NCBI RefSeq assembly: GCF_022014595.1
Contig: NZ_CP091740.1
Location: 1,364,001-1,428,000 of the forward strand
DNA from: Solitalea lacus
GTDB taxonomy: Bacteria; Bacteroidota; Bacteroidia; Sphingobacteriales; Sphingobacteriaceae
Direction: 5' to 3'
Length of the DNA: 64,000 nucleotides
Position 1 is the stretch's first letter, and each line of letters starts with the position of its first letter. Positions 3,014 to 19,642 of this stretch are shown one piece after another. Below the pieces are notes generated by a model, which saw only the letters and a list, made by a program, of their open reading frames with translations, had not been told where the DNA came from and ran no database searches. Made by a program: the position numbers and the translations under genes.

Positions 3014-4271
3014 TTCCGTTTCGGTTGGTATCGAGCTTTATCAGAATAAATAAAAGGATGGTAAAGCTCCATAATGAAGATCCTCCATAGCTGATAAAAG
3101 GTAACGGAATACCTATTACAGGCATAATTCCAATGGTCATACCAATATTGATGAATAAGTGGAAGAAGATGATGGATGCCACCCCATAGCCATATACCCT
3201 TGAAAATGTGGAACGCTGTCGTTCTGCTAAGGCAATTATCCTCATCAACAACACTGAGTAGAGGCCAAGTACTACCAAACTTCCCAAAAATCCCCATTCT
3301 TCTCCTACAGTACAGAAGATAAAGTCTGTGCTTTGCTCTGGTACAAAGTCATACTTGGTTTGTGTCCCTTTTAAAAATCCTTTTCCTAATAATTGGCCGG
3401 AACCAATTGCTATTTTCGATTGGTTAACATTATATCCAATTCCTTTAGGGTCAACTTTCTTTCCCAACAATAGATCAATACGGTCACGCTGGTGAGGTTT
3501 AAGCACATTGTTAAAAGTATAGTTAACGGCTGTAACCAATGTAATAGCTAAAACAGCACTTCCGATGATGAGGGTGTAATGTCTCCTAACCCTTCTATCT
3601 TTCCATAGTAGAAATCCAACAATTACTAGCAAGGTAATGATAATGTACGATTGAGGTATTAGCAGGGAAAGAACAAAAAGTATTACGGAAATTAAGCCAA
3701 AAACAAGGTAGAATGGAGGAAGTCCTTCTCGATACAATACTAAAAAGAATGACATAAAAACCATTGCAGAGCCTGCATCTGGTTGTAATAAAATAAGTAA
3801 AACTGGGGTGAAAACTAAAGAAAAGCATTTGAGCTGATCACTAAAATCACCCAGCTTTAAAGTATTAGAACCTAAAAATCTGGCCAAAGCAAGACTGGAA
3901 GCTACTTTTGCAAACTCAGCAGGTTGCAGTCGGAAACTTCCAATTTCAAACCAAGCTCTATTACCGCCAACCAGCTTACCCACAAAGAGAACGGCTACTA
4001 ACAGTATAAGCGTTATACCGTAAAAAGCATAAGCAGAGAAGTTAAAAAACTTGGAGTCAATGAGCAATATGGCGGTAATTATAATTACTGAAGTTAAAAT
4101 CCAGATTAGTTGTTTACCATAATTACGACTCATGTCAAAAATGCTCGAATGATCAGCATCATAAACTGCAGCATAAATGTTAAGCCATCCAATTAATACT
4201 AAGCACAAATAAATAATGATCGTGATCCAATCAACGTTATAAAAAGGGCTGGTTTGTTGTTTCTGGTTCAT
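3003..4271 (-). CDS. rodA: Rod-shape-determining glycosyltransferase RodA (SEDS family)
   Basis: RodA polymerises lipid II into glycan strands together with PBP2 during lateral wall growth. The 422-residue protein has about ten membrane segments and the family signatures NRAWFEIGSFRLQPAEFAKV, a DFVPEQSTDFIFCTVGEEWG loop and the C-terminal GIPLPFISYGGSSL motif. The last two are diagnostic of RodA/FtsW proteins. It is the last gene of the mreB-mreC-mreD-mrdA-rodA series and starts 2 nt after the mrdA stop codon, so it is translationally coupled. Its 3' end overlaps the convergent gene at 2177-3013. Confidence 0.96.
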   Translation of the reverse strand: MNQKQQTSPFYNVDWITIIIYLCLVLIGWLNIYAAVYDADHSSIFDMSRNYGKQLIWILTSVIIITAILLIDSKFFNFSAYAFYGITLILLVAVLFVGKLVGGNRAWFEIGSFRLQPAEFAKVASSLALARFLGSNTLKLGDFSDQLKCFSLVFTPVLLILLQPDAGSAMVFMSFFLVLYREGLPPFYLVFGLISVILFVLSLLIPQSYIIITLLVIVGFLLWKDRRVRRHYTLIIGSAVLAITLVTAVNYTFNNVLKPHQRDRIDLLLGKKVDPKGIGYNVNQSKIAIGSGQLLGKGFLKGTQTKYDFVPEQSTDFIFCTVGEEWGFLGSLVVLGLYSVLLMRIIALAERQRSTFSRVYGYGVASIIFFHLFINIGMTIGIMPVIGIPLPFISYGGSSLWSFTILLFILIKLDTNRNGIIR

Positions 4272-15169: not shown

Positions 15170-16099
15170 ATGAAATGTGTTATTTTATTGGGTTTTATTG
15201 CTTTCATGCACCAATCAGTTTGCGCACAGCGTATTTTGTTTAAGGAAAGATCAGCAAATGGGGCCACCACCGAACGTTTTGGTAAATATGTTGATGGAGT
15301 AGTGCAGTTTAGTTATTGTCCTTTAAATGTAGTTCAGTACTCAACCCACAATAGTTTTACTTCCATGTCCCAATGGACTTCATCCCCTTCAGGTGCAATT
15401 TATTGGACAAATGGTTTTGCTATTTATAAATATGATTTCGAGTTAGGCAGAAATCAGTTAGTTATAGATAAACTTTTTAGAGTAACACAATTAGTTGCCA
15501 CTGATAAGCATATTTATATTGTCAGTCATCCAGATCAATCCTTGGATGCGCTTAGTAGCCGATATGCAAAAGGGCAGAAGTTGTTACGAATTAATACAAC
15601 TACTGGAAAGAGAGAGCAGATTTCTGTACCTGATTGGGTGAATTTTGCCAATCTGAGTATATCAGCTGATGAAAACACTATTTCATTCATTCATACAATT
15701 AATCATGATGATGAGTCGCTGCAGGAACAACAATTTTGTTTGTATAATTTAGTTTCCAAAAAGGTCTCGATAATTGATCAGGGACAGTTTACCAATAATG
15801 AACATTTTGGAATATCTCAAATGCAGAATTCATCTGTTTGGTTAGACAGTAATAGGTTGTTATACTACAAATGTGAGGGTGGTAAAGCTTCTGGTACCAT
15901 ATTTTATTATGATATAAACAACAAAACTCATATAGCTTGGTTAAAGAGCATTGACGATAAAAATATTACTGGATTTAGTTATAGTAACCGATGGTTTTAT
16001 TTTTTCGACGGGCAAAAGGTTTATAAGACAAAGGATGGGATAAATCGTGAGGTAATGGTGGAGTGGGGAGCCCAGGAAGCATTTTTAGTTAAACAATAA
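15170..16099 (+). CDS. Secreted protein of unknown function, beta-propeller-like
   Basis: The 309-residue protein has a signal peptide (residues 1-19, MKCVILLGFIAFMHQSVCAQ with cleavage after CA). The rest has short repeated units ending in Trp/Tyr-Asp patterns (AIYWTNGFAIYKYDFELGRN, HIYIVSHPDQ, NRWFYFFDGQKVYKTKDG), like the blades of a beta-propeller. I cannot assign a family. A degenerate copy of its last coding segment lies about 50 bp downstream (16147-16264), suggesting an old tandem duplication, and the insertion sequence sits beyond that. Probably periplasmic or surface-exposed. Confidence 0.75.
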   Translation: MKCVILLGFIAFMHQSVCAQRILFKERSANGATTERFGKYVDGVVQFSYCPLNVVQYSTHNSFTSMSQWTSSPSGAIYWTNGFAIYKYDFELGRNQLVIDKLFRVTQLVATDKHIYIVSHPDQSLDALSSRYAKGQKLLRINTTTGKREQISVPDWVNFANLSISADENTISFIHTINHDDESLQEQQFCLYNLVSKKVSIIDQGQFTNNEHFGISQMQNSSVWLDSNRLLYYKCEGGKASGTIFYYDINNKTHIAWLKSIDDKNITGFSYSNRWFYFFDGQKVYKTKDGINREVMVEWGAQEAFLVKQ

Positions 16100-16146: not shown

Positions 16147-16264
16147 GATCAATGGTTTTATTTTTCAGATGGTCAGTATCTTCAGCACTAAAGACGGTAT
16201 AAATAAAGAAGTCGTTGAAGGTGATATGCAGGACTGTATGGGTGAAAAATTAATAATTAATTAA
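16147..16264 (+). pseudogene. Frameshifted remnant of a paralogue of the upstream secreted protein
   Basis: Translation gives DQWFYFSDGQ in one frame and, after a one-base shift, STKDGINKEVVEGDMQDC in the next. The intact gene at 15170 ends WFYFFDGQKVYKTKDGINREV. The match in order and spacing shows a decayed 3' end of a second gene copy. The final 63 bp (from 16202) also fall in the 128-bp block duplicated by the insertion sequence, so they recur at 18171-18233. Confidence 0.75.
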
Positions 16265-16329
16265 GACTTTAACTTTAATGGTTATAAAGAATAGCTAAGT
16301 TTAAAAGCAAAGGCCGGGTCATCCGGCCT
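16202..16329 (+). repeat. Left copy of the 128-bp target duplication
   Basis: These 128 bp are identical to 18171-18298 and abut the left inverted repeat of the insertion sequence at 16330. The copy ends inside the terminator hairpin (AGGCCGG-GTCAT-CCGGCCT kept, outer stem AAAGCAA... lost on its 3' side). Confidence 0.95.
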
Positions 16330-16345
16330 CTTGAGTTTGACAGCA
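16330..16345 (+). repeat. Left terminal inverted repeat of the insertion sequence
   Basis: CTTGAGTTTGACAGCA begins directly after the left target-duplication copy and is the exact reverse complement of 18155-18170. Confidence 0.95.
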
Positions 16346-16461
16346 CTATTTTCTAAAACCTCATTTTTAGGTATGCAGGGCCCATTTTTGGATTGATTTT
16401 TCAAAAAAGTGTAGTGTGCCAACTTTTTGTTTTTTCCCTATAGGGACTTTAGATTTGGCCC

Positions 16462-18078
16462 ATGGCCTTTCTAAGGGTAGAAAACAAGAAGTCAGGAAAA
16501 TATTTACGCATCGTTGAAAGCTATCGCGATGAGAGCGGAATAAGCCGTCATCGTATTTTATATACCCTTGGTAAACTGGAAGACTATACACCAGAAGAGC
16601 TAAAACGTATCGGCTCAAAACTTTACGAACTTGGCGGAGGCGACCTGAAAGATCTTCTGGAAATTACCACGGGCGAAAAAGCCCGTTTCAATTATGGTTA
16701 CTTTCAGGTTTTCTCCAAAGCCCTGTCCCATTATAAACTCCCCCGTTTATTCGGGCAGATCGGCAGCAAGCATAAACTTGGCTTTGACCTGCAGAATGCT
16801 GTGCTGTTAATGATTCTTGAGCGCTTGCAGGATCCCTGCAGCAAACGAAGCTCCTATTTCAACCAAAACGAATACCTGGGCATTGAGAAAGTAGAGCTGC
16901 AACATCTTTACCGTTCTTTAGATAAGCTGGCCGATTATAACAAAGCGATCCAAAAGCAGATCTATCAAACGGGCCGGGATTTATTCAATCAGCAACTGGA
17001 TGTTGTTTTCTATGATGTCACCACACTTTATTTTGAAAGTGAACTAGAACAAGAGGGGGCTTTACGACAAAAGGGCTTTAGTAAAGATGGTAAGATTGGT
17101 ACTACCCAGATCTTGTTTTGCCTGCTGATTGACCGGGATAAACAGCCTATAGGGTATCAGGTATTCAAAGGCGACACGTTCGAAGGTCATACGTTTGAAA
17201 AAGCGGTAAAAGACCTGAAGAAAGACTATCAGATCAATCAGGTGATTGTAGTGGCAGACCGGGGGATGCTTTCCAAAAACAATCTTGATGTTACCACCGA
17301 AAGCGGGTATGAATTTATTGTAGGCGAAAGGTTAAAGAAGCTTCCCGGTTCCCTCCAGGATTTCCTGCTGGACTTGAAGAACTACCATGGAGAATGGAGC
17401 TATAGCGATCATGAAGATCAGCTTGTTATGGTTCGCTATGCAACGATCGAATATCAGGGAAGGGTGATTATTGGGACCTATTCGGCTAAAAGGGCAAAAA
17501 AAGATGCCCACGACCGGGCAGAAAAGCTGCAGACAGCCGAAACTTTATTATCCCGCCCCGAACTCCTCAGTAAAAAGGCGGGTCGTTTCTATTTGAAAAA
17601 ACAAGGTTCACAAACCTATCAGCTGGACCAGGAAAAAATAAAACGCGATGAACGTTTTGACGGCTTTCTGGCTATTGCCACTAACAATAAGAGTCTCTCG
17701 GTAAGTGAAACGCTGGAGCAGTATAAACACCTTTACAAAATTGAACATACCTTCCGCACATTTAAATCCCATCTGGAAACCCGTCCAATGTCTCATTGGA
17801 CAGATAAGCGGATAGAAGGTCATATCTGCCTTTGTTACCTGTCCTATACCTTACTGAACTTCACCTTGCTAAAACTGGAAAAAGCCGGGTTCAAGACGAC
17901 CGAAGGAAAACTGCGGAAACTTCTCGATAAAATGCAGGTGAGTTTAGTGGAGCAACAGGACAAAAACTATTTCCTACGATCTGCAGCCTCTGAGGAAGAA
18001 ACTGACTTTCAGCAGAAACTTGGCCTAAAATCGCTCCCTTCAGTATTGAATGTAGCCTCCTTGAATCAATATCTTTAA
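16462..18078 (+). CDS. DDE transposase, IS1634/IS1549 type
   Basis: The 538-residue transposase catalyses movement of the surrounding element. The catalytic acidic residues are visible: Asp185 in VVFYDVTTLYFES, Asp266 in VVADRGMLSKNNL and Glu428 in the IS4-type block YKIEHTFRTFKSHLETRPM, which is followed by a HW...GHI.LCYL region. The N-terminal part (residues 1-60) includes AFLRVENKKSGKYLRIVESY, typical of this family. No frameshift or stop interrupts the gene, so it is probably active. The ATG at 16462 follows TTTGGCCC; no other start is needed. Confidence 0.94.
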   Translation: MAFLRVENKKSGKYLRIVESYRDESGISRHRILYTLGKLEDYTPEELKRIGSKLYELGGGDLKDLLEITTGEKARFNYGYFQVFSKALSHYKLPRLFGQIGSKHKLGFDLQNAVLLMILERLQDPCSKRSSYFNQNEYLGIEKVELQHLYRSLDKLADYNKAIQKQIYQTGRDLFNQQLDVVFYDVTTLYFESELEQEGALRQKGFSKDGKIGTTQILFCLLIDRDKQPIGYQVFKGDTFEGHTFEKAVKDLKKDYQINQVIVVADRGMLSKNNLDVTTESGYEFIVGERLKKLPGSLQDFLLDLKNYHGEWSYSDHEDQLVMVRYATIEYQGRVIIGTYSAKRAKKDAHDRAEKLQTAETLLSRPELLSKKAGRFYLKKQGSQTYQLDQEKIKRDERFDGFLAIATNNKSLSVSETLEQYKHLYKIEHTFRTFKSHLETRPMSHWTDKRIEGHICLCYLSYTLLNFTLLKLEKAGFKTTEGKLRKLLDKMQVSLVEQQDKNYFLRSAASEEETDFQQKLGLKSLPSVLNVASLNQYL

Positions 18079-18154
18079 AATCAACCACTTAGCTATTTCT
18101 TGTAGTGTGCCTGATTTTTCGTATCTATTTGGTTATAAATATTTTATGTTATTT

Positions 18155-18170
18155 TGCTGTCAAACTCAAG
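18155..18170 (-). repeat. Right terminal inverted repeat of the insertion sequence
   Basis: TGCTGTCAAACTCAAG mirrors the left end at 16330-16345 perfectly and is followed at once by the right copy of the target duplication. Confidence 0.95.
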
Positions 18171-18298
18171 AATAAAGAAGTCGTTGAAGGTGATATGCAG
18201 GACTGTATGGGTGAAAAATTAATAATTAATTAAGACTTTAACTTTAATGGTTATAAAGAATAGCTAAGTTTAAAAGCAAAGGCCGGGTCATCCGGCCT
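18171..18298 (+). repeat. Right copy of the 128-bp target duplication
   Basis: Identical to 16202-16329. It starts AATAAAGAAGTCGTTG directly after the right inverted repeat and ends with TCATCCGGCCT, continuing into the undisturbed 3' arm of the terminator. Confidence 0.95.
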
Positions 18299-18305
18299 TT
18301 GCTTT
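18273..18305. terminator. Bidirectional terminator between the secreted-protein locus and hppD
   Basis: AAAGCAAAGGCCGG (18273-18286) pairs perfectly with CCGGCCTTTGCTTT (18292-18305) around a 5-nt loop. T residues follow in either direction. It serves the minus-strand hppD and, before the insertion, the plus-strand secreted-protein locus. The left target copy retains only its inner half (stem AGGCCGG/CCGGCCT, ending at 16329). Confidence 0.9.
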
Positions 18306-18332: not shown

Positions 18333-19484
18333 TTATAGGTTACCACGACGAGCTTGCTCCAATTCAATTGCTTCGAACAAAGCTTTGAAGTTTCCTTTAC
18401 CAAATGAAGTGGCACCTTTACGTTGAATGATTTCGTAGAATACAGTAGGGCGATCTTCGACCGGTTTAGTAAAGATTTGTAACAAGTAACCTTCCTCGTC
18501 ACGGTCCACTAAAATATTTAAGTCTTTAATAGCCTGAATATCTTCATCAATTTGACCTACACGTTCAAAAAGGTTTTCGTAGTAAGTGTCTGGAACAACA
18601 AGGAACTCAATTCCGCGACGGCGAAGCTCTGAAACGGTATGGATGATATCGTCAGTTGCCAAGGCCAAGTGTTGAACTCCTGCCCCATGATAATAATCGA
18701 TATACTCTTCAATTTGCGATTTCTTTTTACCTTCGGCAGGTTCATTAATAGGAAATTTTACAAAACCGGAACCGTTAGAAACTACTTTCGACATTAATGA
18801 AGTGAACTCGGTCGAAATGTCGTGGTCATCAAAAGTGATTAACAATTTGAAACCTAAAACTTCTTCATAAAACTTAACCCACTTGTTCATTTCACCCCAT
18901 CCAACGTTTCCAACACAGTGATCGATGTATTTTAAACCAACTGGAGTTGTTTGAACTGGAGGGTTTTTAACCTCTACGAAACCTGGTAAAAATGCTCCTT
19001 TGTAGTTTTTACGCTCAACAAAAGTGTGAATTGTTTCGCCATAGGTTTTAATAGCTGAGATTTTTACCTCACCAAACTCATCAGTTAAAGTTTTGGTTTC
19101 AAACTCAGGTTCTGCACCGCGTTTTACAGTTTCTTGGAAAGACTTTTCAGCATCATCAACCCATAAAGCCAATACTTTTACTCCGTCTCCGTGTACTCGA
19201 ACGTGCTCTGATATATAGCTGTTTGGATCAAATGAAGTAGTTAACACCAAACGGATTTTCTCTTGCTGCAAAACATAAGAAGCTCTGTCGCGAACACCTG
19301 TTTCTGGTCCGGCATAAGCTATTAATTTATAACCGAAAGCTATTTGGTAAAAGTACGCCGACTGTTTTGCGTTACCTACGTAAAACTCTACGTGATCGGT
19401 ACCTAATAAAGGTAAGAAATCTGTTGCCGGGTTATGGTCTTTATGTAATTCTTGTAATTTATTCACTGTTTCAGCTGTTGCCAT
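18333..19484 (-). CDS. hppD: 4-hydroxyphenylpyruvate dioxygenase
   Basis: HppD converts 4-hydroxyphenylpyruvate to homogentisate, the second step of tyrosine breakdown. From the ATG at 19482-19484 it is 383 residues. It has two vicinal-oxygen-chelate domains: the first starts FLPLLGTDHVEFYVGNAKQS and the second GLKYIDHCVGNVGWGEMNKW. Iron ligands are expected at the His of YIDHCVGN, the His in GVQHLALATDDI and the Glu near the C terminus (FYEIIQRKGATSFGKGNFKA), which is the family signature. The frame extends 30 codons further upstream to an unlikely start. It lies downstream of hmgA on the same strand. Confidence 0.97.
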   Translation of the reverse strand: MATAETVNKLQELHKDHNPATDFLPLLGTDHVEFYVGNAKQSAYFYQIAFGYKLIAYAGPETGVRDRASYVLQQEKIRLVLTTSFDPNSYISEHVRVHGDGVKVLALWVDDAEKSFQETVKRGAEPEFETKTLTDEFGEVKISAIKTYGETIHTFVERKNYKGAFLPGFVEVKNPPVQTTPVGLKYIDHCVGNVGWGEMNKWVKFYEEVLGFKLLITFDDHDISTEFTSLMSKVVSNGSGFVKFPINEPAEGKKKSQIEEYIDYYHGAGVQHLALATDDIIHTVSELRRRGIEFLVVPDTYYENLFERVGQIDEDIQAIKDLNILVDRDEEGYLLQIFTKPVEDRPTVFYEIIQRKGATSFGKGNFKALFEAIELEQARRGNL

Positions 19485-19642
19485 GATTTTAAAATTTTTA
19501 AGTTGATAACTAGTTATTGGTTTTGCCCAGAGCGTATATTTTTTAGGAGAAGATTCCTCCTTTTGCATTACCACATGGCTAAATGTTCACTTAAAACGGC
19601 TAATAACTGCATGTTTTGGTTATTTCTGTAATCACTTAATAC

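What the first reader, a model, noticed from the sequence alone, without database searches (positions are those of the whole stretch)
16202..18298. IS1634-type element with a 128-bp target duplication
The insertion sequence (16330-18170) is bounded by 16-bp perfect inverted repeats and is flanked by exact 128-bp direct repeats, far longer than the 2-14 bp usual for insertion sequences. IS1634 and IS1549 are known to make unusually long duplications, and this is a clean example in a Bacteroidota-like genome. The two copies are identical, so the event looks recent.
Basis: partly seen in the sequence, partly recalled or inferred. Interest (0 to 1): 0.75.

Follow-up and report, generated by a model that had tools for sequence, protein, structure and literature searches.

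The report
Jumping gene with giant target duplications
A bacterial jumping gene of a known family copies 128 bp of its landing site when it inserts, its sister copies copy up to 1,353 bp, and this odd habit turns out to belong to one whole branch of the family, so a 25-year-old puzzle about how it happens can now be tested.

Summary
The reading as a target duplication holds. Three congeneric species have the site once and uninterrupted. The other four copies in this genome have perfect DRs of 368, 406, 495 and 1353 bp, and two further IS1634 elements in the same genome have 28-886 bp. All 24 resolvable copies in five complete genomes have long DRs (median 250 bp); two of these were found as swapped partners after recombination between copies. 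The published range is 8-514 bp, so 1353 bp extends it. A transposase tree splits the family once, deeply: one side makes 5-6 bp DRs, the other 14-1353 bp (Bacteroidota, Mycoplasmopsis, Rhodococcus, Aliarcobacter, lactobacilli), with one apparent reversal. Both DR edges carry the same half-site, non-T|A-R-A-A-A. Lengths fit an exponential, show no helical phase, and no deletions were seen. I infer two separate strand transfers, the second delayed behind strand-displacing synthesis; that step is not shown. Long DRs also spare genes: 17 of 22 insertions leave every gene whole. The element is a new member of a known kind; the clade-wide pattern is the interesting part.

The parts
16202..16329 (.). 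left copy of the 128-bp target duplication (direct repeat)
   Evidence: 128/128 identical to 18171-18298
16330..18170 (+). IS1634-family insertion sequence, 1841 bp
   Evidence: boundaries fixed by comparing five copies in the genome
16330..16345 (+). left terminal inverted repeat CTTGAGTTTGACAGCA
   Evidence: 16/16 complementary to 18155-18170
16462..18078 (+). transposase gene, 538 aa; DDE residues D185 (17014-17016), D266 (17257-17259), E428 (17743-17745)
   Evidence: NF033559 IS1634 transposase 343 bits, PF01609, invariant D185/D266/E428, best fold match Tn5 transposase
18155..18170 (-). right terminal inverted repeat
18171..18298 (.). right copy of the 128-bp target duplication
16202..16208 (+). 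half-site 1 at the DR start (AATAAAG), joined to the IS right end in the other copy at 18171
   Evidence: half-site consensus non-T|A-R-A-A-A over 44 insertions
16323..16329 (-). half-site 2 at the DR end (AGGCCGG on the - strand), joined to the IS left end
   Evidence: it lies in the 3' arm of a terminator-like hairpin
18273..18305 (.). intact terminator-like hairpin AAAGCAAAGGCCGG-gtcat-CCGGCCTTTGCTTT; the left copy (16304-16329) has lost the distal part of its 3' arm to the insertion
   Evidence: inverted repeat I6; sequence

Best explanation
SHOWN: this is an IS1634-family DDE element whose insertion duplicated 128 bp of target. It belongs to a branch of the family in which insertion almost always leaves a long DR of variable length (14-1353 bp here). 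Both DR edges carry the same one-sided half-site (non-T|A-R-A-A-A, read into the DR on the attacked strand), so each IS end picks its own strand-transfer site; the spacing is not fixed by transpososome geometry. INFERRED (about 0.35 for this particular scheme): the two strand transfers are not simultaneous. One end joins first; the free target 3'-OH primes strand-displacing synthesis across the target; the second end joins the other strand after a delay, at the next acceptable half-site; fill-in makes both copies double-stranded. This would yield duplications but not deletions, roughly exponential lengths (mean about 330 bp), no helical phase and the same motif at both edges. The transposase-to-sliding-clamp binding reported for an IS1634-family relative (PMC4549789) would fit. 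CONSEQUENCE: because the whole DR is copied, a gene is broken only if it spans the entire DR, so long-DR insertions are much less damaging than 5-bp ones and could in principle be lost precisely by recombination between the DRs.
For: Own genome: 5 copies with perfect DRs 128/368/1353/495/406, plus two other IS1634 elements with 165/50/155/886 and 47/28. Other complete genomes: 580, 570, 418, 149, 38; 273, 226, 544; 131, 325, and 156 and 281 as swapped partners after recombination between two inverted copies; 75. That is 24 of 24 resolvable copies. Empty sites are single copy in three congeners. The tree puts 5-6 bp and long DRs on two sides of a 99/98-supported split with one exception, while shuffled labels average 6.6 changes against 2 observed. 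Half-sites: A at +1 in 32/44 and 35/44 (p 1.5e-9 and 5e-13), purine at +2 in 37/44 and 40/44. Lengths fit an exponential (KS p 0.87) and show no helical periodicity. A nested IS110-like element in the same host has a 5-bp duplication, so the host does not make long DRs for every IS.
Against: The order and timing of strand transfers are not observed; they are read from end products. Exponential, gamma, Weibull and lognormal fits cannot be told apart with 24 lengths. Absence of deletions may partly reflect selection. Microbacterium (two copies) and one Rhodococcus copy in the long branch have apparent 5-bp DRs, so the same machinery can also make a short stagger. No clamp-binding motif was tested in this transposase.
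Confidence: 0.85

Rival explanations
1. Looped-target concerted insertion: both IS ends attack at the same time two sites 30-1350 bp apart on one looped or unwound duplex; host repair then separates and fills the strands.
For: Same half-site at both edges; a DDE enzyme of Tn5-like fold.
Against: Independent choice of two sites should give deletions as often as duplications, yet 24 of 24 copies in complete genomes are duplications. No helical phasing even below 200 bp, and DRs of 23-50 bp are too short for easy duplex looping.
Confidence: 0.25
2. Two-sister insertion: one IS end joins one sister chromosome and the other end its sister behind the fork; one daughter inherits a duplication, the other a deletion.
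For: Would give variable lengths without helical phase; duplications survive better than deletions. Lengths show no helical phase.
Against: Needs extra breaks on each sister. Lengths as short as 14-50 bp are common, and no deletion product was seen.
Confidence: 0.15
3. The repeats were there before the IS (a tandem duplication), or were made later by recombination, and the IS only sits between them.
For: Long flanking repeats can arise by unequal recombination in general; a degenerate partial duplication of the upstream ORF lies next to the left DR.
Against: Exact abutment at every copy with different sequences and lengths, one motif at all edges, and single copy in three congeners.
Confidence: 0.02

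Closest known systems
IS1634 (Mycoplasma mycoides subsp. mycoides SC)
   Same: Family name-giver; long, variable-length DRs on insertion (reviewed in PMC2266710: 8-514 bp together with IS1549, no mechanistic model proposed).
   Different: Different host phylum. The present element reaches 1353 bp. The IS1634 sequence itself was not compared; a Mycoplasmopsis relative with a 43-bp DR falls on the long side of the tree.
IS1549 (Mycobacterium smegmatis)
   Same: Long DRs on insertion (PMC2266710).
   Different: Sequence not available here; the nearest tested are Rhodococcus elements with DRs 23-224 bp.
Short-DR IS1634-family elements (Acidiphilium, Geobacillus ISGka5)
   Same: Same family model, DDE transposase, similar size; Acidiphilium transposase binds the sliding clamp (PMC4549789).
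   Different: DRs of 5-6 bp (PMC8024623 gives 6 bp for ISGka5), on the other side of the deep split.
Tn5/IS50 (IS4 family)
   Same: Best solved fold match to the predicted transposase (4dm0, E 5e-6).
   Different: Fixed 8-9 bp DR; YREK motif complete (PMC2266710).

Membership tests
IS1634 family | transposase matches the curated family model | tested here: met
   NF033559 343 bits against cut-off 100; IS4 and IS701 models far below theirs
IS1634 family | DDE triad with long N3-C1 spacer; YREK motif lacking R | tested here: met
   D185, D266, E428 invariant, spacers 80 and 161 residues; Y421 and K435 present, L424 in place of R; definition from PMC2266710
IS1634 family | single-ORF element of 1500-2000 bp with ends C-----YT | tested here: met
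   1841 bp, one ORF, ends CTTGAGTT
IS1634 family | 5-6 bp AT-rich DR, given as typical in the published family table | tested here: not met
   128-1353 bp. The same paper (PMC2266710) lists IS1634 and IS1549 themselves as exceptions, so this is typical of one branch rather than defining
long-DR branch (IS1634/IS1549 type) | long DR whose length varies between copies | tested here: met
   128, 368, 406, 495, 1353
long-DR branch (IS1634/IS1549 type) | transposase groups with other long-DR elements | tested here: met
   inside the 39-row side of a 99/98 split; IS1634 and IS1549 not included
long-DR branch (IS1634/IS1549 type) | long DR made in a single observed transposition event | not testable with these tools
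   needs a transposition assay

The most novel reading that the evidence does not exclude
One branch of a DDE transposase family has given up the fixed stagger: its two ends are inserted one after the other, with strand-displacing DNA synthesis between the two events setting the duplication length. The resulting gene-sparing duplication would be a selected trait of the element.
Probability: 0.3. Interest if true: 0.85.

Novelty: new member of a known kind. Interest (0 to 1): 0.6.

Why it matters
DDE transposases are taught as making short duplications fixed by the geometry of the protein-DNA complex. IS1634 and IS1549 broke that rule in the late 1990s and no model was offered (PMC2266710). Here the exception becomes a clade-wide trait with one main origin, a half-site rule, a length distribution, an apparent absence of deletions and a possible benefit (genes stay whole), all of which can be tested with a simple transposition assay. 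It also warns that IS tools expecting 2-14 bp duplications will misread such insertions, and that short-read assemblies can break at them.

Tried and rejected
Convergent-gene or terminator targeting: all 18 genes cut by one DR edge have their 3' end inside the DR. Gene-sparing selection alone predicts 53-64%. Once the purine-rich motif on coding strands is included, 73-80% is expected and p falls to 0.003-0.05, so targeting is not claimed. Helical phasing: none. Zero-DR copies in G518 first looked like exceptions but are swapped partners. Copies in G009 and G380 that failed the exact-match test carry 1 and 3 mismatches. The G492 copy has a diverged, partial DR and was left out of the 24. Plasmid DNA search with the IS found nothing. 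Solved-structure sequence search gave only chance hits. The papers on IS1549 and IS1634 themselves are not held. Elements of Bacteroidota on the short side (L047, L048, L039-L041) gave no readable DR. Orientation against replication was not tested because the origin was not located.

Full report
OBSERVATION. The window holds an 1841-bp element at 16330-18170 with 16-bp perfect terminal inverted repeats, flanked by 128-bp direct repeats (16202-16329, 18171-18298) that are identical over all 128 bases. The one large ORF (16462-18078, 538 aa) matches the IS1634 family transposase model at 343 bits (cut-off 100) and Pfam DDE_Tnp_1. Residues D185, D266 and E428 are invariant; Y421 and K435 of the YREK motif are present and R is replaced by L424, as described for the family (PMC2266710). 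The predicted fold (mean pLDDT 74) has Tn5 transposase as its best solved match.

OTHER COPIES IN THE SAME GENOME. Five copies of the element exist in the 4.4-Mb chromosome. All five have perfect flanking repeats: 128, 368, 1353, 495 and 406 bp. One copy is itself interrupted by a 1578-bp element whose 366-aa protein I read as IS110-like (my own recognition, not a family search) and which has only a 5-bp duplication, CCTTC. Two further IS1634-family elements in the genome have DRs of 165, 50, 155, 886 bp and 47, 28 bp.

IS THE REPEAT A TARGET DUPLICATION? In three congeneric species, the regions corresponding to the window site, the 368-bp site and the 1353-bp site are single copy, with alignments running across the DR end without interruption. 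A same-species empty-site strain was not available. In another complete genome, two copies that seemed to lack DRs turned out to have each other's partners (156 and 281 bp), as expected after recombination between two inverted copies about 43 kb apart. A pre-existing tandem repeat is therefore rejected.

HOW GENERAL. In five complete Bacteroidota genomes, 24 of 24 resolvable copies have long DRs: 28-1353 bp, median 250, mean 327; two have 1 and 3 mismatches. One more copy, in a sixth genome, has a diverged partial DR and was left out. Draft genomes and plasmid records add more: Persicobacter 33 and 406, Aliarcobacter about 680, Rhodococcus 23-224, Mycoplasmopsis 43, Carnobacterium about 309 (left copy interrupted by about 115 bp), Ligilactobacillus 14. 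Other IS1634-family elements have 5-6 bp: Geobacillus, Alicyclobacillus, Streptomyces, Acidiphilium, Mesorhizobium, Thiodictyon. Published values agree: 6 bp for ISGka5 (PMC8024623) and 5-6 bp as the family norm, with IS1634 and IS1549 as exceptions at 8-514 bp and 'no mechanistic model' (PMC2266710). The 1353-bp DR lies well beyond that published range.

PHYLOGENY. A maximum-likelihood tree of 51 transposases has one deep split (99/98 support) between the 5-6 bp elements and the long-DR elements. The label needs 2 changes against 6.6 for shuffled labels. The one exception is a Microbacterium element inside the long side, with 5-bp DRs at both copies examined; one Rhodococcus copy also shows 5 bp. 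The Mycoplasmopsis row has a very long branch, so its place is less sure.

HALF-SITES. Over 44 insertions both DR edges show the same preference on the attacked strand: not T, then A-R-A-A-A reading into the DR. A at +1: 32/44 and 35/44, p = 1.5e-9 and 5e-13. Purine at +2: 37/44 and 40/44. DR lengths show no helical periodicity and fit an exponential (KS p = 0.87), though gamma, Weibull and lognormal fit about as well.

MECHANISM. Shown: two strand-transfer sites chosen by the same one-sided rule, 14-1353 bp apart, always in the polarity that gives a duplication. Independent simultaneous attack would give deletions about as often as duplications before selection; none was found in 24 copies. 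I therefore favour a delayed second end, with strand-displacing synthesis from the first junction in between. This is inference, at about 0.35. Clamp binding by an IS1634-family transposase (PMC4549789) is compatible but was not tested for this protein.

CONSEQUENCE FOR GENES. With a long DR a gene is broken only if it spans the whole DR. By ORF calls in reconstructed empty sites, 17 of 22 insertions leave every gene intact. The excess shows selection, targeting, or both. All 18 genes cut by one edge have their 3' end in the DR, but most of this is expected from the motif's strand bias plus selection, so targeting to gene ends is not claimed.

LIMITS. DR boundaries can be off by 1-2 bp. Draft assemblies favour short DRs, so only complete genomes were used for the length statistics. 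Gene calls are ORF-based. The half-site model used was built from the same sites. IS1549 and IS1634 sequences and papers were not available.

VERDICT. The finding is real and correctly read. The element is a new member of a known kind. The value lies in turning two old anecdotes into a clade-level rule with testable mechanics.

Noticed in passing
window 15991-16014 and 16152-16175: A degenerate partial repeat of the end of the upstream ORF (15170-16099) lies just before the left DR, probably a decayed tandem duplicate of its C-terminus.
   Followed up: no
L013 (G000:C1:1040386-1047809): A 1578-bp element with a 366-aa IS110-like protein is inserted in one IS1634 copy near its right end, with a 5-bp duplication CCTTC.
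   Followed up: partly
L089 and L091 (G518:C1, about 2.01 and 2.06 Mb): Two inverted IS copies have exchanged flanks (DR partners swapped), indicating inversion of about 43 kb by recombination between them.
   Followed up: yes
L097 (Carnobacterium plasmid) 3342-3457: The left copy of an approximately 309-bp DR is interrupted by about 115 bp, possibly a small non-autonomous element.
   Followed up: no
L110 and L118 (Microbacterium plasmid): An element inside the long-DR branch has 5-bp DRs at both copies, a likely reversal that could help map what sets the stagger.
   Followed up: partly
L113 (Rhodococcus plasmid): Two inverted copies of one IS1634 element lie about 1.2 kb apart, each with its own DR (23 and 158 bp).
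   Followed up: no
window 18273-18305 and 16304-16329: The insertion cut a terminator-like hairpin downstream of the 4-hydroxyphenylpyruvate dioxygenase-like gene (18333-19574, minus strand; function recalled, not tested); one intact copy survives in the right DR and the sequence after it.
   Followed up: partly
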